This document shows positions 11,238 through 40,185 of a stretch of DNA of 64,000 bases, piece by piece. Each line of letters starts with the position of its first letter. The first letter of the stretch is position 1. This stretch comes from Blastobasis lacticolella (taxonomy: Eukaryota; Arthropoda; Insecta; Lepidoptera; Blastobasidae), in the NCBI GenBank assembly GCA_905147135.1, contig LR990046.1, positions 18,878,501 to 18,942,500 on the forward strand, given 5' to 3'. The notes below the pieces were generated by a model. The model ran no database searches, had not been told where the DNA came from, and saw only the letters and a program-made list of their open reading frames with translations. A program made the position numbers and the translations under genes.

Positions 11238-11241
11238 AATC

Positions 11242-20570: not shown

Positions 20571-21027
20571 GAAATAAAAACTAGTTCTAGGATCATGTGT
20601 ACCGTGCCTATGCCTAAAATTGTACTCATTTTATACCAATTATTTGTCATTGATGTTCCACGAGGAAGGTATCTAGTTGCAACTAAAAGTGAAAATGCGA
20701 AAACATGTCTTATGTCAATATATTTTAGGACTGTTTTTTCTCGTCCAGGTAGCTTAGCTTGTCTGTAACTGTTAGACGGCAACTCGGCCGAGACTTCGTG
20801 TACATTACGTTCAACTTGTATGTTTTGGACACCATCTTGTTCATAAGGTGGCGACTGAGGTACCTCGACGCTTGAGATGACGTATACTAGAAAGCAAGCG
20901 AAAACAAAAATAATTAAAATAACTTCTGACCCAACCCCAACTCCGGTAAGAATGATTTGCCTCTTTAATAATCCAACTGCTAACCAGGCAGGCCCTAAGC
21001 TTATTTCCCACTTTAGTGATATAAAAC
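20564..21027 (-). CDS. SLC6-like gene, candidate alternative last exon (E13)
   Basis: A minus-strand frame stays open for 168 codons (21067-20564) and begins just after acceptor-like AGs. With the acceptor at 21028-21029 the phase fits the donor at 23002, adding Arg then 153 residues. Early residues LGPAWLAVGLLKR loosely recall the WGPA found in SLC6 C-terminal tails. A further hydrophobic segment (VILIIFVFACFLVYVI) follows, then a polar tail (SVEVPQSPPYEQDG). It could instead be the last exon of another gene. Acceptor polypyrimidine tract is weak. Confidence 0.45.
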
Positions 21028-24000
21028 CTACGAGTATAGGTACTGCTGAATAGTCGCAAGTCGCAATCTATGAGAAAAACATAGGTACACTACTGAGTTT
21101 TTATCTTCAAATATTACTGACTAAGTCGCAAACATAAGATGGTTTCCTTCCCCACATTTTCGTAATAATAAATAGTAAACCATCACGGGATGCTAATCAG
21201 CTCCCAAGACTGTTAAACCTCTGTGAAAATCTGGGGAAGTCCGACTCTTACGTTAACTAAATCGCGTAAAAACCAGCTAAATTAAGTAAGGAACAAATGT
21301 AAGTGTTCCCATGCCATGCAAGGGAAATGCGAGAGCCATGGCTTACGATGCGAGGATCCTCAAGACCGGGAGAAATGGAGAAAAACGAGTTGGAAAGCGG
21401 CCCTGGCAGAAGCAAGGACTGACCGCTCGGATGATGATGACGAGTATTTCCGTCATAGACCTTATAAAAGGAGTCGAACTGGAGTTCGTCCCGCCATCTT
21501 GTTTCCCGCACCTTCTTTTTAGTTAAAGTCAGATTCTAATAAAATCTAAGGTGACCAAGATCATGAACTTACACTTCTCGAGTCGAACTGCTTTCTTAGT
21601 TGTCTCACAACGTGATCTATTGGACCCCACGTAGGCAAAGGGGTGACTAAAGACAGCCAACCCTGAAATCATAAAAAATCATCATTGTCTGTATTCCTGT
21701 TGCGCGTGAGAGCCCGAGATTTGCCTTGACCTTAATAGAATGTGAGGGTCAAGTACAAAAAAAATCCACCTTGTAGCGACAGTAGACGTTAGGGAACCCA
21801 CAAAACATACGGCTGCCCGTGCTCAACCTAGCACAAATAATACACTTATTTTTGGTGACTGTAATGTGTATAAATAGCGAAACTGCCAAAAGGATGTAAG
21901 GCAGACCAGTTTGTTTACTAATAGAATCCACACAAGAGGACATATAACCGCTACGAAAAGTTTTAGTTTGGGTCACTAAAAAAAGTGCCAGTTTGTGCAC
22001 GAGCACGAGTTTTGTGGGTCTCCTAAACGTCTAATATATCTACAAAGTGGAATTTTGTAGCTATAGTAGACGTTGGCGTTCACAGTCTAAGAGGGTGGAC
22101 CCCGGGTCTGCTTTTAACATGATCCAGGATTTGGTAGATTGGGTAATTTACATGATTGGGTGATAAAGAAGAGCTACTGCGCGTGGTGTCCGGCAGAGTA
22201 GAATAGCACCAATCCCTTATAATCGTGAATATCGTACAAGGCAACTAATGTTTTCGATGTAAAAGATTAGCAGCAGCGTTTTCCATTGTTAAATTTATAA
22301 CACTGCGATCTTCAACCTGCCTGCTACCCGTGGAGATTACGGCAATGATCTCCCGTCTCATGGGAGAGGCACTAAGCCCTGCAGTGGACTGTGATGATTG
22401 TCATCTGACCTCTGTGACCCCCTTAACAGGGGAACCTGACCAGATGGGATGATGTTTACGCAGTCAGTCGACAAAAGTTTATACTAATATTATAAAGAGA
22501 AAAGATTGTATTTTTAAACTTTATGCCATGCTACATTGTCACGGAGCAATATAGACTACTTTTTATCCCGGGAAATAACAGATTCCCACGGGGAAGCTGA
22601 TCGTTTATAGAGATTCAAACTGCGCGCCAAAGCCACTGAGAACGGCTAGTCATATAAAATATATGTTTGTATATTTATATATGACTTCGTTTCACTCAAA
22701 AACTACTAAACGGAATTTTATGCGGTTTTCAACAAAAGATAGAGTGACTCAGAGTGATTCTGGCGCTAAAAAATAAAAGAAACGGAAATAACAAAATCTA
22801 ACACATAACACAAAAATCACCAAAGTCAGGTCCTTTGTTGACAAGGTGTGCCACAGCACAGCAATTCCGACACGATTTATTAATTTTGTAAAATATGTGT
22901 TTTGCTTTTTATTTGTGTTTGTTGTAATGTTAATCAATAAATGTCTTTTATTTCATTTTAAAGTGTTAAAAAAAATATTAGCGATCTTAACTTGTTTCTT
23001 ACGTAGCATCACCACAAAAGCGTACACAGCCCCTGCTATGTATGGTATCCAATACAAGTGAATTGTCCACGGTCGAAATTCCTCGTAGAACGAGGCAGAT
23101 GTCTGGCGGTGATACCTGCTAGAGTCATTGAACGCTTGCAGTATCCTGGTCACTTTCACCTGCAATTATGAGAACGGGTATAGGTTTCAAAACAATTGAG
23201 AGCTCCTACCACCATAATCTTACATATATTACATTCCTTTTAAAGTGAAATCGCTTTTAGTGTTCTGTCTGTTCATAAGTTTGTATATCCGCTAACTCCT
23301 TTTAAACCACGCAACGGGTTTTGATGCGGTTTTTACCTCGATTTTTCACAAGTTGCATGCGTCTTGGTCACGAGTAGATTGTAGTCTACTGACATGACGA
23401 GTGCAACTGCGTCGAAATATCGAGGTAAAATTAATACTAACCGTGGTAATAACCCGATAACATGTGCGATGCAAGATTAGAAGGGTACCATTTATGATAT
23501 ATAAATGGTTGCTCGGAAAAAAGGTAAACTGCCCCGAATTAAAAATTAAAATTAAGTACCTAACTAGATATTTTGTAACACTTGTAGAGCTTGTCTAGTC
23601 TAAAATGACGCGCCCCACTACTTAGTTAGTTGATTTCGATGTGTGAGTGCAAATATTGAAAACGACACTTCATCTGTGTGGGAGAAAATAAACGACGCGT
23701 GCTCCTACGTTTGAATTTCACCGGCAACTGAATGACCAATTACAACGGCATTTGTATATGTATTGCGTGCATATTTCTAACTTGCTTGTGTGCGTTAATG
23801 CGATAGTGGGGCGCGTCATTTTAGATTAGACGAGCTCTACATATGTCACACAGGCTATTCTTCAATCAAATAAGCCAAGCCAGTGACTCCTCTCTACCAA
23901 TTTGCGGTGCACAATCCGGGTCCATATTGATTCTTATTATTATCTTTATTATAACATCTAAATGTAACACATGGAATGCGAAATAAAGAAATTGAAAAAG

Positions 24001-27000
24001 AAAACGATTTCCGAGCGGACGAAGGTAGCGGGCAATAGATAGTACTAATTATAAACTTGGAATGTACCATATAATAGACTGGCGACATTACGATGCTCAG
24101 TATCCTGCCATATGTTATTGGAGAACCCATGTTAAACATGTAATCGTCCGATAGTCGTCCAAGCGGGTAGAACACTATGCAAGCTATCATTTCGAAGATA
24201 CCGGTCACGGCGTACGAATATACGCTCAAACTGTTTTTTTGCTGAAATTCGAATAAACACTAATTAGACGAAATAAACAGTACAACCATTGGCCGTGTAG
24301 TGTCCGGCAGAGTAGCATAGCACCATCCCCTTAAACTCGTGGGTGTCGTACAAGGCGACTAATGTTTTGGAGGCAAAAGATCTAGAGTCTCCGTAGGCAA
24401 GAAAATGGGCAGCAGCGTTTTCCATTGTTTAGTGGAGTTTATGGCAATGACTTCCCCATTCGTGGGAAAGGCCCTAAGTTCTGCAGTGGACTGTTGTGGG
24501 CTGTGACGATGAAACAGTAATAACTTGGCGTTAATGCATCAGGTATTAAAGTGGGACGATTACCATCTGGGAATCTCTGGGGGAGGCATCTGCCCAGCAG
24601 TGGGCGTCTTACGGCTGATATGATGATGACGATGATAATTGCCATCTGATCTCCGTGACCCTGCTACGGAACCTTACCAGATTGGATCATGGTTACACAT
24701 TCAGTCGCCTGAATGTGTAGGTTTCTTCACGATGTTTTCCCACAACGTAAGAGTATCGATTAGTATTTAACTAATGTACCTATATAACTCAGAAAAGAGC
24801 CATTGGGACATAGCGGCTGTGGGATTCGAACCCGGTAATCTCCGGACGGACGCTCCTGGTTGAAATTCGAATAATTTTGATGAATTTAAGTAAGATATGA
24901 ACATCGATACAACCAAGAATGGATTAAAATTTAGGAAGCCTAACGACCAAACCTAACCTAATCTAACGACCGTCATAGCGTTCAGCCACATTCAATACGC
25001 TACCAACAAAGTTCTTGAGCGGTATTCTTTCGCTAAGTTGGTAGTTTTAGCAGACTTTAATGGTAACCACACTGAGTGGCTAGGGTCAAGTCGACCTACT
25101 AAGCCTGCCGGGAGGTCCGGTCCGCCCACGAATTCACTCTGACCAATAATCACGCATCTGGTAACCACCTATATGCTAGATGTATAAAATATACATTACT
25201 CAGGAGTGACAGGATTTTTTACCAGGAAAAATAGTAGGGGGACCGTACATAACTCTATCTGAGTTTTAAATAATTAGTACTGGAAATCGAACTCGGTACC
25301 TCTCGCTTTCGATTCAAACCCGTTAGTCATTAGGTATCCGAGGCTCTTAATTTCATGATATATTTGTATATAAATTATATAGATAATTAAAGTATTTTAC
25401 CCAATTGTGGATTATGAATGGGTGCACACATCCTACTACACAGATTATACCTGAGACCATAAGTATCTTCAGTTTTGGCCATTCATGGACTATAAGATCA
25501 AGCATACATTGATACACGATTATCTGAAACATTAGAAGATAATTTTAGTATAGGTATTCAAGCTTACTGGGTTCTTCTCGGCGAATCGTGAACTGTCTAT
25601 TTCTAAAGGGCTCCCTAAAATCATTTAAGTAAATCTGAAGCCAAAGCTATGCACTTATTGCATGACTTTAAACCAAGTACCCGTTTTAAAACACGTGAAC
25701 TTCTAAGAGATAACTCCACTTAAGTTTTTTATGCTACGCAGTGACTAACCAGCTGGTAGCCCACCTGATGGTAAGCAGTAGCTGTCGTCCATTACGTTTA
25801 CTATTCGTGTATTTAGGTTGCAGGCAACCAAAATGCGGAACCGCAATCGCGTTGTCACTGAGACTAGGATGAAATGCCTCATACCTGTAATTGCGCTAGC
25901 TACCTTATTCATCATACTGGAACACAACAAAGCAAGCATTGTTTCTTGGCGCAAAAATAGATAAGGTGGTGGTTCTCACCCAGGGACTCCTCAGACTTCC
26001 GCGAGTTCTACAACCTGACTGTCACTGTGTGCTTCCTTCCTACTTTCCTACCCCTCTCCTTTTTGACGATTGAAAGAGATATTTAATGTTCTAATCAATC
26101 AATAAATTTTGAATTTTATGATTAAAAAGTTAAACTTCACTTTTTCTGATGACATGCGTTCTGCTTCGTCGAAATTATATAAATCAGATTTTTATAGACT
26201 ACTGTTAGTGTACATAACATAGATAAAATCATACTTACGAATATCACAAATTCCAATAACATATTTGTCACGAAGAATGTTATCATAAGTACGTCGCCGC
26301 TAGTTTTCAAAGTTCCGAAGAACAGCGGTACGATATACATATACGGGTATTCTCCTACAAATTATAATAAAGGAATACATATGGTGCAAGTGTAAACCAC
26401 TGATTTCACTTTCGTGGACCACTCATTTACACAATAATGTCGACTACCACTGCCTTGTCAACCTTGTCAGATGGTTACAATTGCCATTTAAATTTTGCTT
26501 CTGTAGGAGCGTCACTGGCCGAGTGGTTAATGTATCCGACTAGTAAGCGAGATGTTCCGGGTTCGAATCCCTCTGTGGCCATGTCCCAGTGACTCTTTTC
26601 TGAGTTATGTACATTAGTTGAATACGTGCTCTTGAGATGAGGCAAAACATCGTGATGCAACTTGCACATTCAGACGATTAAATGTGTAACCATAATCAAA
26701 CTTGGTCACGTTCCCCTGGTAGCAGGGTCGCTGCATTGTAATAACCTAATCTGCCAAATCCTGAATCACGGTCAAATACAGACCCCGGGCCCTCGTGCGC
26801 GAGAGCACAACCGGGACATTAATTAATCAATTTATTTATTTACTCTAATACATGGTGCTTAAAATGTACAGGTACAGGTGTTAAAATTAGTTACCATCGC
26901 AAATAGTAACGCCAAGATAATTTATAAGGGGATAAAATGAATTCTTAATCCTTAGCATGTCTATGACAAACATTTTCTCAGTGGCCCAAAACTTAACCAT

Positions 27001-30000
27001 ATTACAGCACTGTCGCTGGCTGTCATTTGTGTTTGGGTACGCAGGACACGATAAGAGGTATGCCATAGTTTGTACAACACCACAGAACAGTTGGCGTCGG
27101 AGCCACCCGAAAGTCACCTGGCCATGTTGTTCTTCTGGCCGGTCTGAGTCCGAAGCCCATATAAATACTACCAAACCGGCCATGGTAACTCATGGCCAGA
27201 AGGAAAGCCCTCGGAAGTTGAAACAAAGGGAGTCGGTAAGGATACACTCTCGCACCATACTTCGTTTCGGATACAAATGAATTATAACAATTACTGCCCT
27301 TTCGCTAATGCTTGGAATCTCGTTGCGCGAAACAATCAGAAAGAAGGATATACGCAAGCAAACCAAGGTCACCGACCGAATGTTTACCAGGCTAAAGTGC
27401 AAGCGTGCAGGGCACATAGCTCGAAGAACAGATATCCGATGACAGATGGCAGTGAAGTTCTCGAGTAGCGGCCACATATCGGAAGAAGCAGCGTGGGTAG
27501 GCCTCCCACAAGGTGGACTGACGACCTGGTAAAGATCGCAGGTACCAGCTGCATGCGGAAGACACAGGACTGGCCTTTGTGGAGATCTCTGGGGGAGGCC
27601 TATGTCAAACAGTGGGCGTCGTTCGGCAGATATGATGATGATGACTGTCCTTTTTAATTGGTATAACTTAAGTGTGTCGCACGATTACAGCTGTAGCACA
27701 CAGGCCAATGCACGTTTTTGCTTACTTTTCACTATCGCGTACGCGTATCACAATTGAGTTATTTATGAATAAACGAAAATTCTTTATTGAATAGGCCCGT
27801 GTAGGCGAATTGCCCAAAAGTTCTACGTACCAAGAACACCACTATTATATCCCATTCTTAACATATGTTCACTATAAGTTTTCATCTCCATAAGTACCCA
27901 TGATTTTAGTAAGTAGCAGAAAGCGTTTGATATTACAATTAGTGAACTATCAAAGGCTGGGTTAACCTGAAAATATATTATTTACACAAAAATTATATAA
28001 AAATATCAAAAAGCTTAGGAATACTTTCCAGGGTCCTGTAACTCTCAATCTATCGATTACTAATAACTGAAAAATAGCCGTGTCCGTACATTGAAGATAT
28101 TGCAGAAAAAAAAGCAGTCGGGACAGGGTACAGTGGTTTCAAAACATTATTTTGTCTATCTGCCTGTCTGTGCGCACATCACACTAAAACCGCTGAACGG
28201 ATTTTGATTGCAATTTTACAATTTGGTAGCTTGGGGTCCAACTTAAATCTGCGTCACGTTTCGTCTATTTCGGGTAGATAGAATTTGAGATACAACTTGA
28301 CCTCTCCGTAGTACTAGCCTTCATATTATAAGCAGGTCATCTAAAATGGTCCTCTAAACAAAGTCGCGGGCAATAGCTAATCTGTCATGAAAAGTTTTTC
28401 CATGCCATCGAACTCGCTGCTGCACCATACAAATCTGTCTGTCACGCTTCGAACAGGTTACGTAAGTCGGAACAAGATGATTAATACGACACCGATTATT
28501 TCATTTCTTTAATTGAGGAACGTACCCCCTTTGGCATATTCCTCACTGGAAACTGAAGTCATGGTCGTTGTCTTCTTATATTTTTTCGATAACGTTGCGA
28601 TGAAATCTTTAGCGTTGCGTCACCGTACCGTTTTGCAGTACGACGCCGTTGTTGCGATGCGACGCCGCATCAGTCCTAAGGTCGTGCGACCATGATCGTG
28701 CGACGGGCGGTTTTGAGGTCTCCTATTGGTCGGGCGACGTCCGTCGTACGATCAGGGTCGCACGATCGTTGCCAATTAGGACAGCGCCTTACGTCAGTAG
28801 GTTCATAAAGTTACTAGCAGTGATCATGATTTTGACGTGGCATGTTATATCATTGTTACCTCTTGGTTGCTCCTGGCAGTTAATATATGTATAGTAGGGG
28901 GGGATATCATCAATTGACCCAGGACAATTAGATCCATTTTCTGCAAAATGATATTGAATTAATTAGAAAAATATTAACAATAATAGCTGTGGACCCTACC
29001 ATTATCCCAAGACAAACTCGCATGCACGTGGTCTGTTTGCTGACAAACGAACGAGGGTCTGGAAAATCGGTTTTTCTTAAGCGGGTTATGATGGTCGGTT
29101 GGTACTACCAAGACTGTTGGTTAGTAGATACGTAGGAAATGTGTGCCTATAATCTGTCCAAACTGACTTGTCTTATTTGGTTAAGGAAATTATGTATTTA
29201 AATGGATAATGTGCAGCAGTGTTCGTTGAAATTCACATTCTATGTGTTTTTTGTATAATTCTCGACATCTATACACATTATACGTAGCGTGATTGATACG
29301 GCAAGTCGTGATTTTCGGCATTGGTTGTTCACCAAATAAGACAAGTCAGTATAAACAGATCATAAATCTACGGTTGTCAAGAAAAGTTAATCTCCAATAT
29401 CGAGAGCTGCTCGCATCCACCACAATACCAGATCCTTTCACTTAATTTCAACCAACGTCGGGCTATTTGAAAAACAAGGTTGTCTGGACCCATTAGGCCT
29501 CTGGAGAGAAATTGGCTCTCTATGTGTTCCCTGCCATCTGTACTACGAGTATTAAGGAAGTATAATATTCGTGACAGACAAATGTATAGCCAATATAAAA
29601 TATAGGCTTCTGATAAGAATCACCTATTCTTCAACCCTACAAATTTATTCAATCTGGAGAGTTCATCACATAATTCCTTTCTAAGTTGTGTATAGAACTA
29701 CACGTATTTACCTTGTTTAATTCAATTACTTGCTTTTCATATGCAGCTGGTATCATAATTAGCGGCTTGTAGGCAACTTCCAGTTTCACCCAAATGAAAA
29801 ACAGACCCAGAAAAATAAAAAACCCATTCATAATCCAATGCAAGATGTTGAATATCTGAAAGTGTTAAATAATGTTTTTTATAACATAGGTATTTTTTTT
29901 TATATCACCTAACATAATAATGAATGTGTACAATAAAAAAAGTAATAATTAGACAACGAAGGTGAAATTGTAAATAATTACAGTGACTAGCAAAAACCAC

Positions 30001-33000
30001 GAAATAACTAGGTCACTTACATAAACAACGCTATTTCATAAACAGGTAAAAATAGCCTCATGGCACTCATTCATGGGGATATAAATAATATTAAAAAAAG
30101 TTATATTATACACAATACAGAGTGTATTGTCTATTTTAATATAATAAAAAAAGTCCTTTGACTTTATAGCGCAATCATGAGTTGTTTAGAAAATATCATC
30201 GTTCATATACGTTAGCTGGTCCAAAAGTTTTTATTCAACGGCTGGTTATACATGCTATTGTTTTAATTTTTATATCGTTTAAAGGCAAATTATATTACAA
30301 ACTCCTTGGTCAAAAATCAATAGACGGCGACCATTACTTATTATTTTATCGAGTATTTAAAAAAACATGTCTGTCCATACAATTCCATACTACTTTGGTA
30401 ATATGGGAACGATTACGTGGCAGACGTACTATAATTATATTATTAGGGTTAATGTGATTATATTATAAGGAAATTATATTATAAGGGAAATGTCACAACA
30501 TTAACAAGCATGAGATTCAGGATGAAATGAGGATTAGATCCCAGGTAGTTTCCACCACGGTAGTTCCATGAACTTCATAAAGTTAGGAAGGTTGTATCTC
30601 GAATAATAGCCTCCTTTCTCAGAGAAGAGCTGAAAGTTACTTGTGCCAATTCATGAGACATAATTTCCATGGTCCTTAAAAAATGTAGAAACTACATGGG
30701 TTTGAAACTATAATTCATACTGAATCTCACAGCTAGTAATATTGTGACATTCTTTTATAAGAGACTATACCCTGATGACGTTTTCTGGAGTGACTGACTT
30801 TGGCGGCTGCCCTGGTCTAGGTTCATGTTTCAGGTCGCTCTGACCTCGTTTAAAGTCATAAAATCAACAAACGACAATAGCATAGGTAAGGGACATTTCA
30901 CCAAAAGGGCTGATAAAATTTTCATGTGATTCTATAAACGTTAACCAATATTTATAATCATAATAAATAATACAACAAAATGCTTCCCGCGTTACCAGCG
31001 TGTTACCAACATGTTATTTTTAATAATCGATAAAAAAAATAACCAAAAGTTGCCGGCTAATGATTTTTAGCCAAGGAGTGTGTAATAAAATTTGCCTCTA
31101 AACGATACCAAAATTAAAACAATAGGGTGTGTAACAAGCCGTCGACTAAAAACTTTTGGACCAGCCTAGTAAGTGACCTAGTTATTTTTGCTCAGTATAT
31201 TTTGATCAATCGAAAGACGGCAAGTAATAGACAGAAGTCTTTCCCATCTTATAAAACCTTTTTCGGCCTCTGTATGGGTTTGCTTCAAGCTAGTTGGGTT
31301 TATTTCAATAGGTTCCTATGATGTGTTGGTTTGCTGACCGGGGTTAGTAAGGTAAGTCTTATGAAATGCTATTAGTACTGTTCGGTCATTATTATCATCT
31401 AAAGTAAGGTTCAATAGAAAGAGTCCAAAGATCCTATATCACCATAACTGTAAGTACTATATACAAATACTTAAATAAAAGCATCGGTGGCTTAATGGAT
31501 AAGGAGAGTGGTTCGCACCCTGAGGTACCGGGTTCGAATACCAATGCCGCCATGTACCAACGACTCTTTTCTGAGCTATGAACATTAGTTGAACACTAAC
31601 TGATGCTCTTACGATGAGGAAGGTTCAGGTTTAAGTTAATGGGATCCTTTTTCAGCACTTGAACTCAAATTTAGTCCTTTGTACATAGTTAAGGCATGCT
31701 AATTTAGCCTCCCACCAGAAGACCAGCAGTCTCTTTGGACGTTCGAAAATCTCCCAAAGGGATCTCATTCCTAATGCGACTTTTGCCCTGTGGTCCCTTA
31801 GTCTTACGGCGAAGGAAAATATCATGATGGAACCTGCACATTGAGGTGACTCAGTGTGTAACCATGATCCAATCTGGTCAGGTTCCCCTGTTAACAAGGT
31901 CACGGACGTCAGATGGCTGTCGCTCCACTGTAATTATCTGATCTGCCAAACCCTGGATCATGGTCAAGAGGGACTCCGGGACTTCGCGCGCGCGAGCATA
32001 TCCGGGACATTAACGACAAGATGATATATTTGATGATAATGACAAAAACCTAAATAAATTGACTTATTTAGATTTCTAGATTATACTTACCGTTTTCGTG
32101 CTTTACTTTTGTCTTTTTTAAATTTATTTATTTATTTATTAGTTCCTTTCACAGTTTAACAGCAATTAAATACATATACACCTACCACTTTACCTACCCC
32201 TCCCAAATGTGACTCAATTAGCTGAACAATACACCCGTACTCACCACCCAAATGTATCGCTTGTACAATTGATTGTGACATGAAAACGCAACAACCCATA
32301 TGACGAAATTATAAATATTAATATTGTTTTGAAGAAATCGTGCGTAATACGAATCGTATCTACTTGATCTGTAAAAAAACGATAATTGTCAACCAACAGC
32401 TTTGAAAATATAATAGAAGGGCAGAAACTGGAACGCGGACGTAACATCATGTAATCGGGGTATGGGGTCTAACCAGGTCTAACCACCATCACATTGGCCC
32501 AAGCCCCCCCAGTGGTTCCCCTGCTGTCAAACGGACGAGTCTCCGGCGAACCGGTTTTTCCCTAACAGGTTGTGCATATCGAATGGTAGTCGCCGCACGT
32601 AAAAAGACAAGACGTCGCAGAAGTATGGAAGGTCAACAATTCTCTGATTTCAATGATTGAAATTGTTACTTTTACGGTGACGTATGATCGATTTTACAGT
32701 TTCAGCTTATTGCAATGTTTGACGACCTGAGTGTCTTACGGGTCTGGGTGTTCTATGTATAATAATTATGTATTTAAAAGTATTTAAGTAGTTTATCTGT
32801 TATCTAGCACCCATAAGACAAGCTTTGCTTACTTTGGGGCTAGATGGCGCTGTGTGTATTTGTCCACGATTATTTATTATTTTATTATTATTTAACTTTA
32901 TTAGCAAATGAATCCATGAAATCGATTATACGCAAAAGTAGCAATTTCAATCCTTAAAATCAGACAATTGATGGCAACAAAGTTACGTAATTAGGCAGCT

Positions 33001-36000
33001 GATTAGATTTTAAACCAGGTAAAGGGGTCGTCGCATAACGACGCACAGGGTCATCGTCCTATACCACAAAAAATAAAACTTAATAAACTACGCAAATGTA
33101 CCTGTACTCTGCTTAGGGGGCTAAAATCGTACCTGTACTCTGCTAAGGGGGGTAAAAACGTACCTGTACTCTGTTAAGGGGGGTAAAACGTACCTGTACT
33201 CTGCTAAGGGGGGTAAAACGTACCTGTACTCTGCTAAGGGGGTAAAAACGTACCTGTACTCTGCTAAGGGGTGTAAAAACGTACCTGTACTCTGCTAAGG
33301 GGGTAAAAACGTACCTGTACTCTGCTAAGGGGGTTAAAACGTACCTGTACTCTGCTAAGGGGGATAAAAACGTACCTGTGCTCTGCTAAGGGGGGTAAAA
33401 ATGTACATGTACTCTGCTAAGGGGGATAAAAACGTACCTGTACTCTGCTAAGGGGGGTAAAAGAACCTCAGTCCGATTGCTACGAAATGTGGGGTACAAT
33501 CCAAGTTTTAACTCATCGTTTAGATAAAGACGCAAAATTGTAGACGCCGTTGCACATATACCATATGTTGGAGGCTGGTTTTTGTACAAGTGCACCAGAA
33601 AGGGCTTCGTCGTATGACATCTGAAAATGATTTTAGCTTTATTAATTTGGTAAAATAGGAACAAGCACTGTCAGGTGGTAGGACTCTGTCGAGCCTGAAG
33701 AGTCCGCCTGGTTAAGGTGGTACGATTTTCATACAAATTTGATGTAACGTTTGATCGACATTCCTATAAGGGTTTGATGTTTTTAATGTAAATTTGTCCA
33801 ATTGTGCGCGAAATAGATTTCTACATGTCAATAATATAAACCAAAGCCATGAAAAAGGAAAATATTGTAATCACAAAACAACGCCATCTAGCGGTGGCAT
33901 GTGTTTTTTTCGATTTAACTGCTTTATTAAAATCATTCACCTATAGAAACTCATTGCGCACCATTGAATACATTTTCTAAGAGTATAAATCATAATACAA
34001 TCACTAAACACTCAAACGAATAAAAAAATGACGAGAGAAATTTAGTATGGGCGTCGAATCACCTTAACTACGACCGCCTTATCTATTTCTGCCGCCAAGC
34101 AACAATTTTTGCATTGTTGTGTTCCGATTCAAAGGACAGGGAAGTCATCTCAATTACAAGCATTTCATCTTAGACCTCACAGGGAGAACGCATCTGCGGT
34201 TCTGCATTTTTGTTGCCTGCAATCTAGAATGAATCGCAAATATTATGGGTGACAGTTACCGCTTACCATCAGGTGAGCTGTATGCTCGTTAAAAAAAATT
34301 AAAAATATTAGATTCCTATTTTGCTGACCATTTTGATTTGTTCCCGATGTAAGCTTACCGAGTTGCTTTTGCGATACACTCTCTAAAAATGACGTACTTG
34401 GTGCAGGCCTCGGCCACTTGGGTCGGACAAGCAAGGAGACAAGTGCAAGAAGGTTCTGACTATAGCCAGTCCCTCTCAGAAATTCTCCGACCCTCACTGC
34501 CCACCGTGAGCAATAAGTTATCCTTCTTTCAGAAAAGTTCCGAATACCTCATCAGCTACAAAAGTAGTCCGTACCAACTATAGGATTAACATGCCTGGGG
34601 AGCTAAAAAGGCCACATTAGCGTATTACGATTTATATTAATTTGTCACAACCTTATCTGGAGTGTCGCTGTTGTTGACATTGACATGACAATTCAATACG
34701 GCGTCACTTAGTTCTAGCAATGGCCACCAGATCAGATAAGTTTGTGGCACTCTAATATGAATCATAATATGAAACGCTAATGTGGCCTTTGCCATGTATC
34801 CAACTCTAAAATCGCAAAAGGCGAATGCCACACAGCATCGGACCATTGTCGTGGACGGCCAAGTAAGTAATAAACGGCGTACCTACTGTAGAACTCCACC
34901 AGCATATACTTCAATCCTTTCAAAGTCAACCATATCATGATAGAAGCCCTAAGCACCTAACCACTAATGAGAACTGTCCTCAAACTTGGATGTGCAGTAT
35001 ACATCTTTGCACACACGCATGAAGTACATCGAAAGGCGGTCGAATAACTATTAAAAGACAATATTTGATTGATTGATTGACGGGGAAAGAGGCCCCGTAG
35101 GCGACCCAAGAAGCGATGGATTGACATCGCTGACTCGTATGCGAGAGCTAACGGCTTACGACGCGAGGATGCCGAAGACCGGGCGAAGTGGAGAAGAACT
35201 TGTAGGAAAGCGGACCCTGGCAGAGGCCGGGATAAGCGCTAGGACGATGATGATAAGGAGTTGATTGATGATTGAAGTATTCGTTATTGCACCAAAACAA
35301 TATAACAAGGCGGACTTATCCCTCAGGGGTATTTCTCCCAATCAACCTTTGAAATATCGAAAGGGAAAGTTGTTATGCGGACGAAGTGCGTACAAAATTT
35401 AATAATAATAAATAGCTGTATCAAACTTACTTCGACCAAATGTTGCCATATTTAAAAAATTTCTCTAAGTAGTGGCAGTAGCTTGTTATTATACTGGAGA
35501 ATTGGGTTAGATTTATCACAGTGCATAAGAGGATCGCCGTATTATGACCTGCAAAAAGGGCTTACTTAGAGGTTGCTATATCATTCTACCCCGATAATTT
35601 TTATATACATGCACTCGGCGTCCACTGGGTTACAGGTATCAACTAACTATTTATGCACTGCTTAAGTTTTATTTACTTTCTTTTCGGAAAACTCACAGTT
35701 ACATATACAATATACATCTTATGTAGTTAATAGGAGCATCGGTGCCCGCGTGGTTACAGTTTCCGACTCGTAAACGAGAGGTACCGGGTTCGAATCACAT
35801 TGCAGCCATGTACCAATGATTCTTTTCTGAGTTATGTACATTTAAAATAGTTGAATACTAACCGATGCTCTTACCGGTGAGAGAAAACATCGTGACGAGA
35901 CCTGTACATTCAAATGACTGAATGTGTAACTTTGATTCAATTTGGTCAGGTTTCACTGAAGTCATATGGCAGTCGCTCCACTGTAATTACCCGATTTGCC

Positions 36001-38570
36001 AAAGCTTTGGTCATGGTCAAACCGGGCCCTCATGCGCTAGAGTCCACCTGGACATTAACACCAAGATGATTATTTTTTAGTTTATGTTATTAACAGGAAG
36101 CCAAGAGAGATATCTCACGATACGAACATAGACAACTTAATGAAAGATGTCGTAATATGGTTACGACTTTAGCAATACATAATAATTTCATCATGATCGT
36201 TTCCACCGTTGGACATCCACTGCTGGGCATAAGCCTTCCCCACGCCTTCCACACCGATGGCTTCTGCGCCTCGTGCATCCATTGGCTCTCAAAGGCTTTA
36301 TGATCTCATCGGTCCATCTCGTGGATGGCCGTTCTACGTTGCTGAGTAATCGTAAATTATAAAAGCGGCACTGGTTTAGTAACAGCGTGCTTGCGAGACC
36401 GATGAGCAAGTTTGAGCACCATTCGCAGAGTTCGGGAGCTTATTCGACTTTCATACTTCGAGTGTAGGTTCATTTTAGCACCGCAACGAGCTTGCAACTC
36501 CTCAGGTGTACCTCCTAATACCGGAGGGGAAGCGAGATTCACCAAGGTCTTCCGCTGGATTCTCGGGAGTCGATTGGTACCCTGTGACGATATACCTATT
36601 GTTAATATTAGATTATGTATAAAAAGTACTCACCCCGTAACAGAGGAACCATCTTCGAAACGAATAGGTGTTCATGAGGGGCGTAAGATGCATAAAATAA
36701 GTCAATAAATGTCATAGGAAGGATGTTCATCACTACAGTGATTATATAAGTGCATACAAACCTGTAAATTGTACATTAGATTTATAATAATTGTCTTAGT
36801 ATTTTATTAGAATTATAAATAAATATAAATATTCGTGGACAAATTCACACAGCGCCATCTTGCCCCAAACTAAGCAAAGCTTGTACTATGGGTGCTAGAT
36901 AACTGATATACTACTTAAATACTTTTTTAAATACATACTTATTATACATAGAACACCCAGACCCGTAACAGAAATTAAAATTCATCATTTAAATTTCTGC
37001 GCGGCCGGCAATCGAACCCGGGACCTCTTGCGTGGCAGACCATTGAACCACTCAGGTCGTCAATTATGCCATAATAGGATGTTTTATATTTTGGGACAAA
37101 TATAATTTCGTTCTTAAATTTTTACCGTTAAGATAATTTAATAATTGAAAGGTTAACGAGGACAATAATACGAGAATTTTTTGTATCTTGAGAGAGGGAG
37201 AGTTTTTGTCTTGGGGTTAAAGTCGTCACGGATAAGATTGAAGAGGATCGCTTGCGCTGGCTTGGTCACGTGTTCCGCAAGTCTCAGGGTAATTATTTAT
37301 TTATATGAACCTAAATCATACCAAGTCTGTAGTCTCAGGGTTACGAGGAAAATAAAGTACCTATTTATATAATACTTGTCAGTGTCAGGATAGAGGTCCC
37401 GAGGATAAGCCTAAGAAGAGTTGGAGTTTGTTGTTTGGATTGTCGTGGCCGAGTCGGAGACGAGAGCCAACGGTTTACGACGTGAGGATGCCGAAGGCAT
37501 GACGAAGTGAAGGAGAAAAAGTTTTCAGCGGGTCCCGGTAGAAACTGGGATGACTCGTAATAAGCGGATTTATTGTAATCATCATCATCATATCAGCCGA
37601 AAGACGCTCACACGAGAGATCTCCACAAAGGCCAGTCTTATGTTTTCCGCATCCAGCTGGTACCTGCGATATTCACTAGGTCGTCGGACCACCTTGTGGA
37701 TTACCCACGCTGCGTCTTCCGGTACGTGATCACACTCGAGAACTTTACTCCATCGGCCATCTGTATTTATTTATTGTAAAGTAAATTTATTACAATTACC
37801 AGGCCATATCCACGGATTGCATACACATAATATGGTTCATATGAGGCAAGCTTGCGTAGCATCGATAGAATGCAAGTCTTTCTTTGTAGGTAGTCGGAAT
37901 TGCTCGTCTGGAGGAATCAGTCTGAATCTGCAATTTTATTACGGTTTTTTTGAAATAATTGAGCTTACTTAAATTATTTAAGTCTAGCACTTATCCAGTA
38001 GAGGACGGCGTGGAGTTATTTTTGTTATAAGAATTAGTCAGCACCTATTTACACTTGTGAAAAATCACTTTGTGGTAAATGATAATGCGGTCGCAGATAG
38101 AGCATGCCTGAACAGCTTATTCATTCCAGCCTTGAAGGTGTCCAGATTATAATGATCAGAGAACACACTACGTTCCATTCCTTAGCCATAAGTAGAATAT
38201 AGGCTGAACCAAAGCGGTTTGTGCGGATAGCTGGAAGGTCCACGGCATACGTATGGAACAATCACCCGGATTGTTCCATCCCAATCGTACCCAATGACAG
38301 AAAGAGGCCGACGGAATGAGTTCATGCAACCGCTTCGCACACACGTTAATGTTTGGCATGAATAGAATGCGCTTCCTGGCGAAATGCCTTTCCTTAGGCT
38401 TCATAGACTCCTTCTAAATTTGTAGCTATTCAATACATTACCTTTTGCATAACTTGCAGCTCGTAGTTCTTGAGCTGTATATATGCCCATGATTCAACTT
38501 CAAACGACCTGGAATTAGAACTTGTGCCTAGGTTGGACACCTCTTGGAACTGTTCCACGTCACGGCGCAT
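20564..38570 (-). CDS. divergent SLC6-like membrane transporter, 13-14 exons (overall span)
   Basis: Exons listed separately join in phase from a candidate ATG (38570-38568) to a C-terminus either at 22953 or, by splicing, at 20564. The product has about 11 hydrophobic segments in SLC6 order. The E3-E4 segment aligns with TM2-TM3: PMTFID, then LFYASYAP in place of the family's GQY..G, then PLLRG. E4-E4b gives NIWSKC (EL2 N-x-W...C), E7 the TM6 slot, and E10-E11 TM9-TM11 with FEMIA, VFYPLGR and DDYMFNMG. Family members import amino acids or transmitters with Na+ across the plasma membrane. Here the GLGNxWRFP motif is replaced, so transport is doubtful. Length is about 576 or 714 residues depending on the 3' end. 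No ordinary ORF scan reveals it. The exon chain is solid; the family call is good but rests on pattern alignment by eye. Confidence 0.8.
21331..21452 (+). pseudogene. RTE LINE C-terminal remnant
   Basis: Reads LRCEDPQDREKWRKTSWKAA followed by EARTDRSDDDDE, the typical RTE end (EDA.DR..WRR...ADP.....DDDDE). The GATGATGATG run marks the element's 3' end. Non-functional; lies in the candidate last intron of the SLC6-like gene. Confidence 0.75.
21761..22056. mobile_element. MITE with about 45-bp imperfect inverted repeats
   Basis: Left AATCCACCTTGTAG...AGACGTTAGG.AACCCACAAAAC pairs with right GTTTTGTGGGTCTCCTAAAC GTCT...CTACAAAGTGGAATT. Inner CGTGCTC/GAGCACG also pairs. No coding capacity. A related GTAGACGTT segment continues to 22075. 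Confidence 0.7.
22085..22470 (-). repeat. SINE-A split by a SINE-B
   Basis: Minus-strand SINE-A pieces at 22090-22160 (GGACCCCGGGTCTGC, GATCCAGGATTTGGTAGAT) and 22400-22470 (TGACCTCTGTGACCC, GGGGAACCTGACCAGA) flank a SINE-B, giving a simple order of insertion. Confidence 0.7.
22183..22398 (+). repeat. SINE-B nested in a SINE-A
   Basis: GTGGTGTCCGGCAGAGTAGA to CCTGCAGTGGACTGTGATG. Compared with 3181-3452 a central piece is shorter. Confidence 0.78.
22947..22952 (-). terminator. candidate polyadenylation signal AATAAA
   Basis: On the minus strand AATAAA follows directly after the TGA at 22955-22953 that ends the read-through form of exon 12. It supports an unspliced 3' end for the SLC6-like gene; being AT-rich sequence, it could be chance. 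Confidence 0.45.
22953..23159 (-). CDS. SLC6-like gene, exon 12 (TM12)
   Basis: The acceptor TTCTCATAATTGCAG precedes GTGAAAGTGACC in phase 0. Residues RPWTIHLYWIPYIAG and VYAFVVML form the last transmembrane helix, comparable to the YPWW..IGW...P.Y of SLC6 TM12. Two ends are possible. The frame can continue as RKKQVKIANIFFNTLK to TGA at 22953 beside AATAAA, or it can splice at a near-perfect donor (CTAC|GTAAGAAA, exon edge 23003) to exon 13. Confidence 0.85.
   Translation of the reverse strand: MKVTRILQAFNDSSRYHRQTSASFYEEFRPWTIHLYWIPYIAGAVYAFVVMLRKKQVKIANIFFNTLK
24068..24241 (-). CDS. SLC6-like gene, exon 11 (TM10-TM11)
   Basis: The most diagnostic exon: 58 codons, phase 0 at both ends. 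It reads QKNSLSVYSY, then FEMIACIVFYPLGR, then LSDDYMFNMG and GRILSIVMSPVYYM. The spacing F-E-x-I-A-x3-F-Y-x3-R-x2-D-D-x5-G matches the SLC6 TM10-TM11 loop (FE.IA...FYG..R..DDI..M.G). Acceptor TTCGAATTTCAG at 24242; donor ATG|GTACATT is acceptable but not optimal. RTE-like debris follows in the intron. Confidence 0.88.
24290..24515 (+). repeat. SINE-B copy in intron
   Basis: GGCCGTGTAGTGTCCGGCAG to TTCTGCAGTGGACTGTTGTG, with the central cytosine-rich part deleted. Lies antisense in the intron between exons 10 and 11. Confidence 0.78.
24555..24635 (+). repeat. RTE LINE 3'-end fragment
   Basis: GAATCTCTGGGGGAGGCATC, CAGCAGTGGGCGTCTTACGG, CTGATATGATGATGACGATG: the same terminal block as at 27575-27645. 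Confidence 0.75.
24636..24870 (-). repeat. SINE-A copy in intron
   Basis: Minus strand with CCGCTATGTCCCAATGGCTC, B box GGGTTCGAATCCC, and TTACACATTCAGTCGCC. The 3' third is missing; it abuts the RTE tail. Confidence 0.8.
25285..25352 (-). repeat. SINE-A head fragment
   Basis: Minus-strand head: CGAAAGCGAGAGGTACCGAG with a degenerate B box GAGTTCGATTTCC. Body lost. Confidence 0.6.
25401..25523 (-). CDS. SLC6-like gene, exon 10 (TM9)
   Basis: 41 codons, phase 0 at both ends, acceptor TCTAATGTTTCAG, donor TTGG|GTAAAATA. Residues VYQCMLDLIVHEWPKLK correspond to the SLC6 segment E..i.ai.D..P.lr after TM8, and LMVSGIICVVGCVHPFII is the TM9 helix. It fills exactly the gap expected between exons 9 and 11. 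Confidence 0.85.
25728..25945 (+). repeat. dispersed repeat F, copy 2
   Basis: TATGCTACGCAGTGACTAAC, CCTGATGGTAAGCAGTAGCT, GCGTTGTCACTGAGACTAGG, GGAACACAACAAAGC; same family as 5200-5395. Confidence 0.75.
26012..26105 (+). repeat. CR1/Jockey-type LINE 3'-UTR end
   Basis: CACTGTGTGCTTCCTTCCTA, CTCCTTTTTGACGATTGAAA and AGATATTTAATG closely match 49978-50072, the 3' end after the second LINE. A severely 5'-truncated insertion. Confidence 0.75.
26239..26354 (-). CDS. SLC6-like gene, exon 9 (TM8 region)
   Basis: Acceptor ATTATAATTTGTAG, donor ATTC|GTAAGTATG (near-consensus). After 2 bases completing a Gly codon it encodes EYPYMYIVPLFFGTLKTSGD then VLMITFFVTNMLLEFVIF. The YP and FF..N.LL pattern sits where SLC6 proteins have YPEA...P...W..LFF.ML. 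Ends in phase 0. Confidence 0.86.
26508..26920 (+). repeat. SINE-A, full length with nested insertion
   Basis: Intact head GCGTCACTGGCCGAGTGGTT and B box GGGTTCGAATCCC. The 3' terminus GGGACATTA / AACGCCAAGATAA is separated by an 87-bp (TTTA)n-headed insert (26821-26907). Confidence 0.85.
27320..27645 (+). pseudogene. RTE LINE C-terminus and 3' end
   Basis: Across shifting frames it encodes ETIRKKDIRKQTKVTDRM-like text, KCKRAGHIARRTDI, DGS, RPHIGRRSVGRPPTRWTD and WPLWRSLGEAYVKQWASF, then GATGATGATGAC. This is the typical RTE tail (GHIARRTDGRW...RPP.RW.DD...LGEAYVQQW). Several indels, so dead. It lies in the intron downstream of exon 8. Confidence 0.82.
27831..27966 (-). CDS. SLC6-like gene, exon 8 (TM7)
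   Basis: Acceptor AATATATTTTCAG at 27967, donor CTTG|GTACGTAG. 45 codons plus 1 base: VNPAFDSSLIVISNAFCYLL, KSWVLMEM, then a polar stretch to NSGVL. The D..L.V.I.N pattern matches the start of SLC6 TM7 (D.L.VS..N..TS). Phase 0 in, phase 1 out, continuing into exon 9 as Gly. Confidence 0.86.
28590..28790. repeat. CpG-rich hairpin-forming block
   Basis: Unusually CG-dense for this window, with nested palindromes such as GTCGTGCGAC / GTCGCACGATC and CGTCGTACGATC. Probably the core of a MITE. An open frame through it has no domain. Confidence 0.5.
28860..28940 (-). CDS. SLC6-like gene, exon 7 (TM6 slot)
   Basis: 27 codons, phase 0 on both sides, acceptor TCATTTTGCAG, donor CAAGAG|GTAACAATG. KMDLIVLGQLMISPPTIHIL then TARSNQE fits the SLC6 TM6 slot (W.DA..Q.FFS...G... 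N): a Gln-x-x-x-Ser core remains but the flexible Gly motif does not. Shortest exon and a weaker helix, so slightly less certain. Confidence 0.75.
29712..29855 (-). CDS. SLC6-like gene, exon 6 (TM5)
   Basis: 48 codons, phase 0 to phase 0. Acceptor ATTTAACACTTTCAG, donor AACAAG|GTAAATACG. Begins IFNILHWIMN, with helix GFFIFLGLFFIWVKLEVAYK, then a polar loop AAYEKQVIELNK equivalent to extracellular loop 3 before TM6. Confidence 0.87.
30002..31186. mobile_element. 1.2-kb fold-back element with long inverted arms
   Basis: Left AAATAACTAGGTCACTTAC (30002-30020) and the arm from 30214 (AGCTGGTCCAAAAGTTTTTA onward) pair with the right arm ending at 31186 (AAAACTTTTGGACCAGCCT, AGTAAGTGACCTAGTTATTT). 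Similarity continues for roughly 200 bp into the element. The left arm is interrupted by about 190 bp (30021-30213) absent from the right. No transposase; lies in the intron between exons 5 and 6. Confidence 0.78.
31481..32020 (+). repeat. SINE-A carrying a 181-bp insertion
   Basis: Head GCATCGGTGGCTTAATGGAT and B box GGGTTCGAATACC; the body resumes at 31802 and the 3' end is CGGGACATTAACGACAAGAT. Insert 31621-31801 is flanked by similar TCTTACG.TGAGGA and TCTTACGGCGAAGGA, an imperfect duplication of the SINE sequence. Confidence 0.82.
32122..32190 (-). repeat. (TTTA)n-headed retroposon tail
   Basis: TTTATTTATTTATTTATTAG then CACAGTTTAACAGCAATTAA, as at 3889 and 52447. Confidence 0.55.
32245..32368 (-). 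CDS. SLC6-like gene, exon 5 (TM4)
   Basis: Acceptor TTATCGTTTTTTTACAG, donor GGGTG|GTGAGTACG. After one base completing a codon it encodes SSRYDSYYARFLQNNINIYN then FVIWVVAFSCHNQLYKRYIWV (41 residues), ending in phase 0. The hydrophobic part with its central Trp corresponds to SLC6 TM4 (L.L...W..V). The overlapping frame beginning with Met at 32450 is a shadow. Confidence 0.86.
32715..32885 (+). repeat. SINE-C with deleted head
   Basis: TTTGACGACCTGAGTG joins directly to TCTTACGGGTCTGGGTGTTC, losing the promoter boxes; the 3' end GGCTAGATGGCGCTGTGTG is intact. Confidence 0.8.
33098..33463 (+). repeat. 12-copy minisatellite, 30-31 bp unit
   Basis: Unit is close to GTACCTGTACTCTGCTAAGG followed by GGGGTAAAAAC. 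Twelve units by eye, varying mainly in G-run length (4-6) and A-run length. It stands 35 bp from the low end of exon 4b of the SLC6-like gene, in the intron. Confidence 0.95.
33498..33620 (-). CDS. SLC6-like gene, exon 4b (extracellular loop 2)
   Basis: Acceptor AAATCATTTTCAG and a weaker donor GGATT|GTACCCC. 123 bp, phase 2 to phase 2, so it can be included or skipped without shifting the frame. Residues CHTTKPFLVHLYKNQPPTYG follow exon 4's GNIWSK, recreating the N-x-W-x-x-x-C pattern of SLC6 EL2. The poor donor makes its low boundary uncertain, and it may be a cassette exon. Confidence 0.65.
34090..34290 (-). repeat. dispersed repeat F, copy 3
   Basis: Inverted relative to 5200 and 25728: TTGTTGTGTTCCGATTC in place of the family's GAATCGGAACACAACAA, ending GACAGTTACCGCTTACCATC. 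Confidence 0.7.
34607..34790. mobile_element. 184-bp MITE
   Basis: Perfect 16-bp terminal repeats AAAGGCCACATTAGCG / CGCTAATGTGGCCTTT. An inner AGATAAGTTTGTGGCACT segment is shared with 44684-44702 and, diverged, with 51530-51555. No obvious target duplication. Confidence 0.75.
35080..35255 (+). pseudogene. RTE LINE C-terminus and 3' end
   Basis: One frame reads RGPVGRPKKRWIDIADSYAR then ANGLRREDAEDRAKWRRT and ADPGRGRDKR-stop-DDDD, the usual end of this RTE subfamily, with GATGATGATAAGG at the 3' end. Confidence 0.82.
35431..35548 (-). CDS. SLC6-like gene, exon 4 (TM3)
   Basis: Acceptor CCTTTTTGCAG, donor CGAA|GTAAGTTTG (consensus). Completes a Gly codon, then HNTAILLCTVINLTQFSSII and TSYCHYLEKFFKYGNIWS; phase 2 out. 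This aligns with SLC6 TM3 (G.G.A..V....N.YY..II.W...YL) except that the YY pair is absent. It is followed by the loop containing GNIW. Confidence 0.87.
35732..36075 (+). repeat. SINE-A, full length, in intron
   Basis: GGAGCATCGGTGCCCGCGTG head, B box GGGTTCGAATCAC, body complete with small deletions, 3' end CTGGACATTAACACCAAGAT. Confidence 0.85.
36183..36350 (-). repeat. RTE LINE 3'-end fragment
   Basis: Minus-strand text with AAACGATCATGATGAAATTA end and GAGAGCCAATGGATGCACGA...GCCATCGGTGTGGAAGGC, resembling RTE 3' regions (W.RLMP....CPTVE). Confidence 0.55.
36634..36761 (-). CDS. SLC6-like gene, exon 3 (TM2)
   Basis: Acceptor TAATGTACAATTTACAG, donor ACGGG|GTGAGTACT. Completes a Trp codon, then FVCTYIITVVMNILPMTFID, LFYASYAP, HEHLFVSKMVPLLR; phase 1 out. 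It follows the SLC6 TM2 layout AFLIPY....GIP...LE..LGQY...G......P...G: the Pro and acidic residue are kept (IDL), whereas GQ is AS. Confidence 0.87.
36833..37072 (-). repeat. SINE-C, full length
   Basis: Minus strand: ACGACCTGAGTGGTTCAATG, B box GGGTTCGATTGCC, ACGGGTCTGGGTGTTC, GCGCTGTGTGAATTTGTCCACG. Confidence 0.87.
37215..37560 (+). pseudogene. RTE LINE remnant with internal insertion
   Basis: DKIEEDRLRWLGHVFRKSQG then a break, followed by RGPRISLRRVG and RRHDEVK-like degenerate text of the RTE C-terminal domain. A piece of the KSQG region is duplicated around 37280-37345. Confidence 0.65.
37577..37762 (-). pseudogene. RTE LINE C-terminus, minus strand
   Basis: Minus-strand reading DGRWSKVLEC, RPEDAAWVIH, a GTSWMRKT-like segment and WPLWRSL, as at 27440-27600, then CATCATCATGATT in reverse. 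It lies just beyond exon 2 of the SLC6-like gene, in its intron. Confidence 0.75.
37800..37927 (-). CDS. SLC6-like gene, exon 2 (N-terminus into TM1)
   Basis: Acceptor CCGTAATAAAATTGCAG, donor GCCTG|GTAATTG. 42 codons plus 2 bases: IQTDSSRRAIPTTYKERLAF, YRCYASLPHMNHIMCMQSVD, MA; continues as Trp into exon 3. It occupies the SLC6 TM1 position (EFLL...G..VGLGNVWRFPY), but none of the Gly, Asn or RFP residues that bind Na+ and substrate are retained. Confidence 0.83.
38442..38570 (-). CDS. SLC6-like gene, exon 1 or first exon seen (cytosolic N-terminus)
   Basis: 43 codons starting MRRDVEQFQE and ending NYELQVMQK, phase 0 at donor CAAAAG|GTAATGTA. I chose ATG at 38570-38568 because the frame closes about 50 bp upstream (TAATAA). 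However, an acceptor-like TTTATTTCAAG lies directly before ACATAATG, so this may be an internal exon (38575 edge) with further exons beyond. Polar, as expected for an SLC6 N-terminal tail. Confidence 0.72.
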
Positions 38571-40183: not shown

Positions 40184-40185
40184 TT

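What the first reader, a model, noticed from the sequence alone, without database searches (positions are those of the whole stretch)
22953..38570. A hidden multi-exon SLC6-like gene invisible to ORF scanning
Thirteen minus-strand exons, nearly all with good acceptor/donor sites, join in correct phase at every junction. Phases observed (0/0, 0/2, 1/1, 2/2, 2/2, 1/0, then 0/0 twice, 0/1, 2/0, 0/0, 0/0, 0) would rarely agree by chance. The joined protein follows SLC6 topology, with FE-x-IA...FY...R..DD...G in TM10-11 and N-x-W...C in EL2.
Basis: partly seen in the sequence, partly recalled or inferred. Interest (0 to 1): 0.93.

Follow-up and report, generated by a model that had tools for sequence, protein, structure and literature searches.

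The report
Divergent SLC6-like insect membrane gene
A 13-exon insect gene appears to encode a membrane protein descended from the neurotransmitter and amino-acid transporters (SLC6), but so changed that the standard family test misses the whole protein and its sodium-binding part is not recognisable.

Summary
On the minus strand 13 exons (38570 to 22953) join in phase at all 12 junctions into 596 codons without a stop; 20 of 24 splice sites rank in the top 5% of the strand's AG and GT sites. Being invisible to ORF scanning is ordinary for a gene with 81-207 nt exons. The SLC6 reading is partly supported. Exons 3-5 (TM2, TM3, start of the second outer loop) carry the signal: Pfam SNF ranks first for that piece, below its cut-off (E 0.0039, 16.4 bits against 27), and 17 of 17 PDB matches are SLC6 transporters. 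A scan with no preselected exons also lands on exons 3 and 4. The later exons match SLC6 only weakly, and the full protein has no SNF match. The TM1 motif and most sodium-site residues are not recognisable, but exon 2 (TM1) is the least certain exon. Best reading: a divergent orphan-type SLC6 relative, probably not an ordinary sodium symporter. No search of insect proteins, RNA-seq or structure prediction was possible.

The parts
38442..38570 (-). exon 1 (ATG, N-terminal tail; phase 0/0)
   Evidence: donor AAG|gtaatg in top 2.2% of GT sites; start codon not tested
37800..37927 (-). exon 2 (region where TM1 should lie; phase 0/2); least certain exon
   Evidence: acceptor top 10.4%, donor top 2.6%; 5th of 37 phase-compatible candidates when splice and profile scores are added; its profile score (8.6) is below that of no exon 2 at all (14.0)
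36634..36761 (-). exon 3 (TM1 end, TM2, ...KMVPLLRG; phase 1/1)
   Evidence: SLC6 profile columns 76-118; SNF 39-124 with exons 4-5
35431..35548 (-). exon 4 (TM3 to ..NIWS; phase 2/2)
   Evidence: picked with exon 3 by the exon-free spliced search
33438..33620 (-). exon 5 (second outer loop; completes W-S-K-C, holds the sequon N-R-T; phase 1/2); exons 4 and 6 also join in phase without it
   Evidence: acceptor top 2.9%, donor top 0.8%; of 11 repeated donors only this first one leaves the frame open
32245..32368 (-). exon 6 (second outer loop; phase 1/0)
   Evidence: acceptor top 0.1%, donor top 0.3%
29712..29855 (-). exon 7 (TM4-TM5; phase 0/0)
   Evidence: splice sites top 1.3% and 0.5%; also picked by the composition-only gene finder
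28860..28940 (-). exon 8 (TM6 region; phase 0/0)
   Evidence: splice sites top 1.3% and 2.7%
27831..27966 (-). exon 9 (TM7 region; phase 0/1)
   Evidence: splice sites top 1.3% and 2.8%; picked
26239..26354 (-). exon 10 (TM7/TM8; phase 2/0)
   Evidence: splice sites top 0.7% and 4.7%; picked
25401..25523 (-). exon 11 (TM8-TM9, HEWPKLK; phase 0/0)
   Evidence: splice sites top 1.0% and 6.1%
24068..24241 (-). exon 12 (TM10-TM11, FEMIACIVFYPLGRLSDD; phase 0/0)
   Evidence: best SLC6 profile position is columns 450-501, the expected place, but 121 of 600 class-shuffles score as high; start picked; weakest donor, top 13.8%
22953..23159 (-). exon 13 (TM11/TM12, C-terminus, TGA stop)
   Evidence: acceptor top 2.5%; stop followed directly by AATAAA
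33094..33462 (-). 31-bp minisatellite, about 12 copies, that begins inside the last 25 nt of exon 5 and repeats its splice donor

Best explanation
It is a spliced protein-coding gene of an insect (probably a moth or butterfly; inferred) for a membrane protein with about 11-12 helices that descends from the SLC6 sodium symporters. It has moved far from them, like the 'orphan' insect SLC6 proteins with altered TM1 and TM6. The residues that hold Na+ in TM1 and TM8 are not recognisable, so I think it most likely no longer works as an ordinary Na+/Cl--coupled symporter. It is probably either a sodium-independent carrier or a non-transporting partner protein. Shown here: an in-phase open exon structure, good splice sites, SLC6 similarity of exons 3-5. 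Inferred: expression, SLC6 descent of the rest, loss of Na+ coupling, function.
For: In-phase 13-exon frame; 20 of 24 splice sites in the top 5%. Exons 2-5 piece: SNF first of 24,736 Pfam families (E 0.0039; piece trimmed after a 138-residue version gave 0.01); 17 of 17 PDB matches are SLC6 (GlyT2 best, E 0.027); 16.9 bits against my six-sequence profile, 0 of 10,000 class-preserving shuffles as high (9,362 gave any score). Spliced search without preselected exons: 33.1 bits, 0 of 100 shuffled DNAs, 0 of 100 block-permuted profiles, 0 of 200 column-shuffled profiles (best 33.0), five other strand-region combinations 19.7-26.3. Co-linear pair of profile matches (TM2-EL2 and TM10-12): 0, 0, 1 and 0 of 3000 in four nulls. 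Twelve hydrophobic peaks. Of nine Na1/Na2 positions of LeuT only N286 is kept, seven differ and one faces a gap. Precedent for divergent TM1/TM6 in silkworm orphan SLC6 (PMC5085708).
Against: SNF came up in 3 of 24 Pfam queries from this locus; without exon 5, exons 3-4 gave PPP1R21_helical and no SNF. Exons 7-11: no PDB match; exon 12: one unrelated match. Exon by exon, best profile positions of that model were no more ordered than shuffles (66 of 200 as high) and the score sum was average (95 of 200). Earlier model, co-linear pair: 7, 2, 14 and 0 of 2000 nulls as high. In one search the whole-sequence score was reached by 12, 1, 37 and 3 of 3000 nulls and the best single domain by 7, 0, 10 and 0. 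Exon 2 is uncertain, so the lost TM1 motif may be a mis-chosen exon. No transcript and no relative seen.
Confidence: 0.72

Rival explanations
1. It is an ordinary Na+-coupled SLC6 symporter whose TM1 and TM6 exons were mis-chosen; the true transcript restores the family motifs.
For: Exon 2 has no profile support and 37 phase-compatible candidates exist; one of them, 38230-38172, is hydrophobic and gives N-G-T-F at the place of N-G-G-G-A-F, though with a poor donor (top 45%).
Against: tblastn of five SLC6 proteins against the whole window shows, among the 40 best rows listed, no open TM1 match on the minus strand upstream of exon 3 and no TM6 match between exons 7 and 9. Exon 8 and 9 splice sites rank in the top 3%.
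Confidence: 0.12
2. It is a real polytopic membrane-protein gene of another or an unnamed insect family; the SLC6 match of exons 3-5 is convergence of hydrophobic sequence.
For: No family reaches a curated cut-off for any piece; PPP1R21_helical is close behind SNF (E 0.015 against 0.0039) and has the higher bit score (15.2 against 15.0); exons 7-11 match nothing in the PDB.
Against: 17 of 17 PDB matches are SLC6, all over residues 30-31 to 113-115, the best one ungapped over 84 residues (these chains are related, so not 17 independent hits); 0 of 10,000 class-preserving shuffles, which keep hydrophobicity, score as high; W-S-K-C falls on the SLC6 P-W-x-x-C.
Confidence: 0.13
3. It is a recently dead SLC6 pseudogene that has not yet gained a stop.
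For: Conserved residues are widely lost: 11 of 53 columns invariant in six SLC6 proteins are kept, one of them the start Met; the minisatellite in intron 5 repeats the donor.
Against: 596 codons without a stop and 24 usable splice sites; codon-position composition is skewed as in coding DNA in the earlier 12-exon model (GC 0.40/0.31/0.45).
Confidence: 0.08
4. The exons are chance matches picked by eye from a repeat-rich region.
For: The composition-only gene finder gives 20.1 against a null maximum of 20.4 in 40 shuffles; exons were first chosen by readers who had SLC6 in mind.
Against: Median splice-site ranks of top 1.3% and 2.4% for 24 sites; the exon-free search lands on exons 3 and 4.
Confidence: 0.04

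Closest known systems
Insect orphan SLC6 subfamily (silkworm BmCT1-L, BmSLC6-14, -15, -16; PMC5085708, outline, sections 6 and 12 and passages seen)
   Same: SLC6-type proteins whose TM1 and TM6 are reported as more divergent, function unknown; BmCT1-L is listed with 13 exons and 538 residues.
   Different: Those carry a recognised SNF domain, as the paper states; this one misses the SNF cut-off.
Glycine transporter GlyT2 and proline transporter (SLC6A5, SLC6A7)
   Same: Best PDB matches of the exons 2-5 piece, 84 and 83 residues.
   Different: E only 0.027 and 0.31; other pieces of the protein do not match them, and the TM1 motif is missing.
Drosophila Ntl, male-germline SLC6 (PMC3029318, passages seen)
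   Same: Shows that insects use SLC6 members outside the nervous system, here in spermatids.
   Different: Ntl keeps all residues considered critical for transport, according to the paper; this protein does not.
LeuT (Aquifex), structural prototype
   Same: The protein can be laid along LeuT from TM1 to TM12 in a multiple alignment, which by itself is weak evidence.
   Different: Sodium-site residues kept at 1 of 9 positions in the aligner's output.

Membership tests
SLC6 / SNF (PF00209) | Full-length match to Pfam SNF above the gathering score (27 bits) | tested here: not met
   No SNF at E <= 10 for 596 aa; trimmed 120-aa piece 16.4 bits, E 0.0039, first family
SLC6 / SNF (PF00209) | TM2-TM3-EL2 sequence in register, with W-x-x-C at the start of EL2 | tested here: met
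   17 of 17 PDB matches SLC6, residues 30-31 to 113-115 of the piece; W-S-K-C on P-W-T-S-C
SLC6 / SNF (PF00209) | TM1 motif G-x-G-N-V-W-R-F-P-Y..N-G-G-G-A-F | tested here: not met
   Absent from exon 2 and, among the 40 best tblastn rows, from the minus strand upstream of exon 3; exon 2 itself uncertain
SLC6 / SNF (PF00209) | Na1 and Na2 residues | tested here: not met
   1 of 9 LeuT positions kept, 7 differ, 1 faces a gap; alignment uncertain in TM1 and TM6, and A351 also differs in fly DAT
SLC6 / SNF (PF00209) | TM10-TM12 sequence at the right distance from TM2 | tested here: inconclusive
   Profile match 3.7 bits at columns 452-536 and co-linear; no SNF or SLC6 PDB match alone
SLC6 / SNF (PF00209) | 12 transmembrane helices, LeuT fold | tested here: inconclusive
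   12 hydrophobic peaks, but one lies in the EL2 exon and none in the TM1 exon; fold not predicted
SLC6 / SNF (PF00209) | Na+-coupled transport | not testable with these tools
   needs an uptake assay
Insect orphan SLC6 subfamily | Groups with the silkworm orphans in a tree | not testable with these tools

The most novel reading that the evidence does not exclude
A fast-evolving insect branch of SLC6 that has given up the Na+-binding TM1 core while keeping the outer frame, and acts as a sodium-independent carrier or a non-transporting partner, possibly in the male germline. Family searches with current profiles miss the whole protein, so the insect SLC6 set would be undercounted.
Probability: 0.25. 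Interest if true: 0.55.

Novelty: new variant of a known kind. Interest (0 to 1): 0.36.

Why it matters
If right, profile searches undercount SLC6-derived genes in insects, and a natural protein that keeps TM2-TM3 and the start of the second outer loop but not the recognisable Na+ site would let one test which parts of the LeuT fold are needed for something other than sodium coupling. If it is only a divergent orphan transporter, it is an ordinary, slightly extreme member of a described group.

Tried and rejected
Exon 2 as 38413-38172: the intron before it would be 28 nt and its donor ranks at top 45%. Exon 2 as 38230-38172 gives N-G-T-F but has poor splice sites and was replaced by 37927-37800. 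My first join skipped exon 5; exons 4 and 6 also join in phase without it, so exon 5 could be optional. Changing exon 2 and adding exon 5 raised the TM2-EL2 match from 4.3 to 11.6 bits.

Searches that gave nothing: paralogue in the window; viral contigs (2 pattern matches, neither confirmed); Rfam at gathering scores; NCBIfam; a paper search for strings of a repeat that I recall as lepidopteran. A semi-global score was badly set up (free ends) and is not used. Per-exon tests were mostly negative: of 11 exon sets only exon 3, exons 2'+3+4 and the whole earlier model stood out (14 of 600, 0 of 600 and 1 of 200 shuffles as high). A script failed and was corrected. A bacterial-heavy SLC6 profile lost the signal; I read this as the gene being nearer to animal SLC6, but it counts against. 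At a low intron cost the spliced search ran through many tiny spurious exons; the costs used were picked.

Not done: structure prediction of the spliced protein. Comparison with the solved SLC6 folds is therefore missing.

Full report
WHAT IS THERE. The window reads as insect DNA rich in retroelements and short repeats; a moth or butterfly is my inference from repeat types I recall, and no call proves it. On the minus strand 13 exons between 38570 and 22953 join into 596 codons without a stop, with all 12 junctions in phase.

IS IT MORE THAN CHANCE. Median rank is top 1.3% for 12 acceptors and top 2.4% for 12 donors; 20 of 24 are in the top 5%; the worst are the acceptor of exon 2 (10.4%) and the donor of exon 12 (13.8%). 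These sites were chosen, so the ranks are not independent p-values. A gene finder that uses splice sites and the overall amino-acid composition of six SLC6 proteins, but no SLC6 sequence order, chose exons 7, 9 and 10 and the start of exon 12 in phase at an intron cost of -12 (with a wrong first exon at 32299-32186); at the cost of -13 used for the control it scored 20.1 against 13.5 +/- 1.9, maximum 20.4, in 40 block-shuffles, while 45-64 kb, which holds retroelements, scores 23-28. Alone this is moderate.

IS IT SLC6. First, a test that needs no chosen exons: a spliced alignment of an SLC6 profile (six proteins) to 19 kb of the minus strand. Its best path is exon 3 plus exon 4, joined through the split codon, at profile columns 76-158, plus one spurious short tail; score 33.1. 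Of 100 shuffled DNAs none reached it (max 27.4), of 100 block-permuted profiles none (max 30.9), of 200 column-shuffled profiles none (max 33.0). Five other strand-region combinations gave 19.7 to 26.3. I first saw this path, where settings were varied: at intron costs of -10, -12 and -14 it stayed ahead of the reversed profile (38.0, 33.1, 29.1 against 29.8, 23.4, 21.9), while at -7 the path ran on through spurious tiny exons.

Second, the piece from exons 2-5. Joined as 138 residues it gives SNF first of 24,736 Pfam families by E-value (0.01, 15.0 bits), with PPP1R21_helical at 0.019 and 15.2 bits. Trimmed afterwards to 120 residues it gives SNF E 0.0039, 16.4 bits, below the 27-bit cut-off, with PPP1R21_helical at 0.015; exons 3-6 give SNF 0.011. 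Earlier joins without exon 5 gave PPP1R21_helical and no SNF. In the PDB all 17 matches of the 120-residue piece with E up to 10, from 177,635 sequences, are SLC6 transporters (glycine 2, proline, noradrenaline, dopamine), over residues 30-31 to 113-115; the best is E 0.027 and ungapped over 84 residues. These chains are related, so they are not 17 independent hits. Against my profile the piece scores 16.9 bits; 0 of 10,000 shuffles that keep each residue's class reach that, 9,362 of them giving any score.

Third, the whole protein: two co-linear profile matches, columns 76-164 (11.6 bits) and 452-536 (3.7 bits). A pair as good occurs in 0 of 3000 class-shuffles, 0 of 3000 hydrophobic/polar shuffles, 1 of 3000 exon-order permutations and 0 of 3000 class-shuffles of the reverse. 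The whole-sequence score was reached by 12, 1, 37 and 3 of 3000, the best single domain by 7, 0, 10 and 0. A forced full-length alignment without exon 1 scored 27.0 and was reached by 0 of 300, 0 of 300 and 2 of 500. For the earlier 12-exon model the co-linear pair was weaker: 7, 2, 14 and 0 of 2000.

RESULTS AGAINST. Pieces of exons 7-10, 10-12 and 12-13 have no SNF match, exons 7-11 no PDB match, exon 12 one unrelated match. In all, SNF came up in 3 of 24 Pfam queries from this locus. Exon by exon, order and score of that model were no better than shuffles (66 of 200 and 95 of 200 as high), and of 11 exon sets tested singly or joined only three stood out.

ANATOMY AND MECHANISM. Exon 11 has HEWPKL where fly DAT has DEFPKI. 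Exon 12 has FEMIACIVFYPLGRLSDD where fly DAT has FEAIAVSWIYGTNRFSED. TM1 is not recognisable: no hydrophobic peak there, no GLGNVWRFPY, no NGGGAF. Of nine Na+-site positions of LeuT only N286 is kept, seven differ and one faces a gap, with the caution that the alignment has gaps in TM1 and TM6. Exon 2 is not fixed by the profile: 37 exons fit the phase, 37927-37800 was taken for its splice sites, and leaving exon 2 out scores better (14.0 against 8.6). So 'lost sodium site' is likely but rests partly on an uncertain exon. tblastn of five SLC6 proteins, 40 best rows, shows no open canonical TM1 or TM6 stretch on the minus strand where it would be needed. I therefore think it is most likely not an ordinary Na+ symporter, and either a sodium-independent carrier or a non-transporting partner. 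That step is inference.

WHAT IS KNOWN. In silkworm, 16 SLC6 genes are described; four orphans (BmCT1-L, BmSLC6-14, -15, -16) have more divergent TM1 and TM6 and unknown function, and BmCT1-L is listed with 538 residues and 13 exons and as testis-specific (PMC5085708; outline, passages and sections 6 and 12 seen). Fly Ntl is a male-germline SLC6 needed for spermiogenesis but keeps the critical residues (PMC3029318, passages seen). An arthropod survey of solute carriers (PMC7487162, passages seen) notes a fly SLC7 member so divergent that its pipeline missed it. The present gene looks like a more extreme case of the orphan kind. I did not find it in print, but my five paper searches could not search by protein sequence, and no insect protein set was searchable, so novelty of the gene itself is untested.

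VERDICT. Hidden from ORF scanning means only that its exons are short. The rival explanations overlap (a pseudogene would also be of SLC6 descent), so their odds need not sum to one.

Noticed in passing
window 33094-33462 (-): A 31-bp minisatellite of about 12 copies begins inside the last 25 nt of exon 5 and repeats its splice donor 11 times (CAG|GTAC); only the first donor leaves exon 5 open and in phase, so use of any of the other 10 would bring a stop.
   Followed up: partly
window 6961-9356 and 11241-13637: A 2.4-kb direct repeat, 99.8% identical, 4.28 kb apart: a recent duplication or an assembly artefact.
   Followed up: no
window 49429-49646: An imperfect TAGGG-rich array about 218 bp long.
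   Followed up: no
window 40171-43050 (+) and 46151-48697 (+): Two long open frames with endonuclease and reverse transcriptase domains, non-LTR retrotransposon type; the first is open over 959 codons.
   Followed up: partly
window 54724-56016 (+): Open frame with a partial, below-cut-off reverse transcriptase match and a tail that looks like a GIY-YIG nuclease (motif recalled, not hit by Pfam at 0.01), as in Penelope-like elements.
   Followed up: no
window 30867-31013 (-): Weak match to the HTH domain of Mos1 transposase (E 0.0054, below cut-off), possibly a mariner remnant, inside intron 6.
   Followed up: no
window 20564-21067 (-): A 167-residue open frame with hydrophobic stretches downstream of the gene, no Pfam match at 0.01; may be chance.
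   Followed up: no
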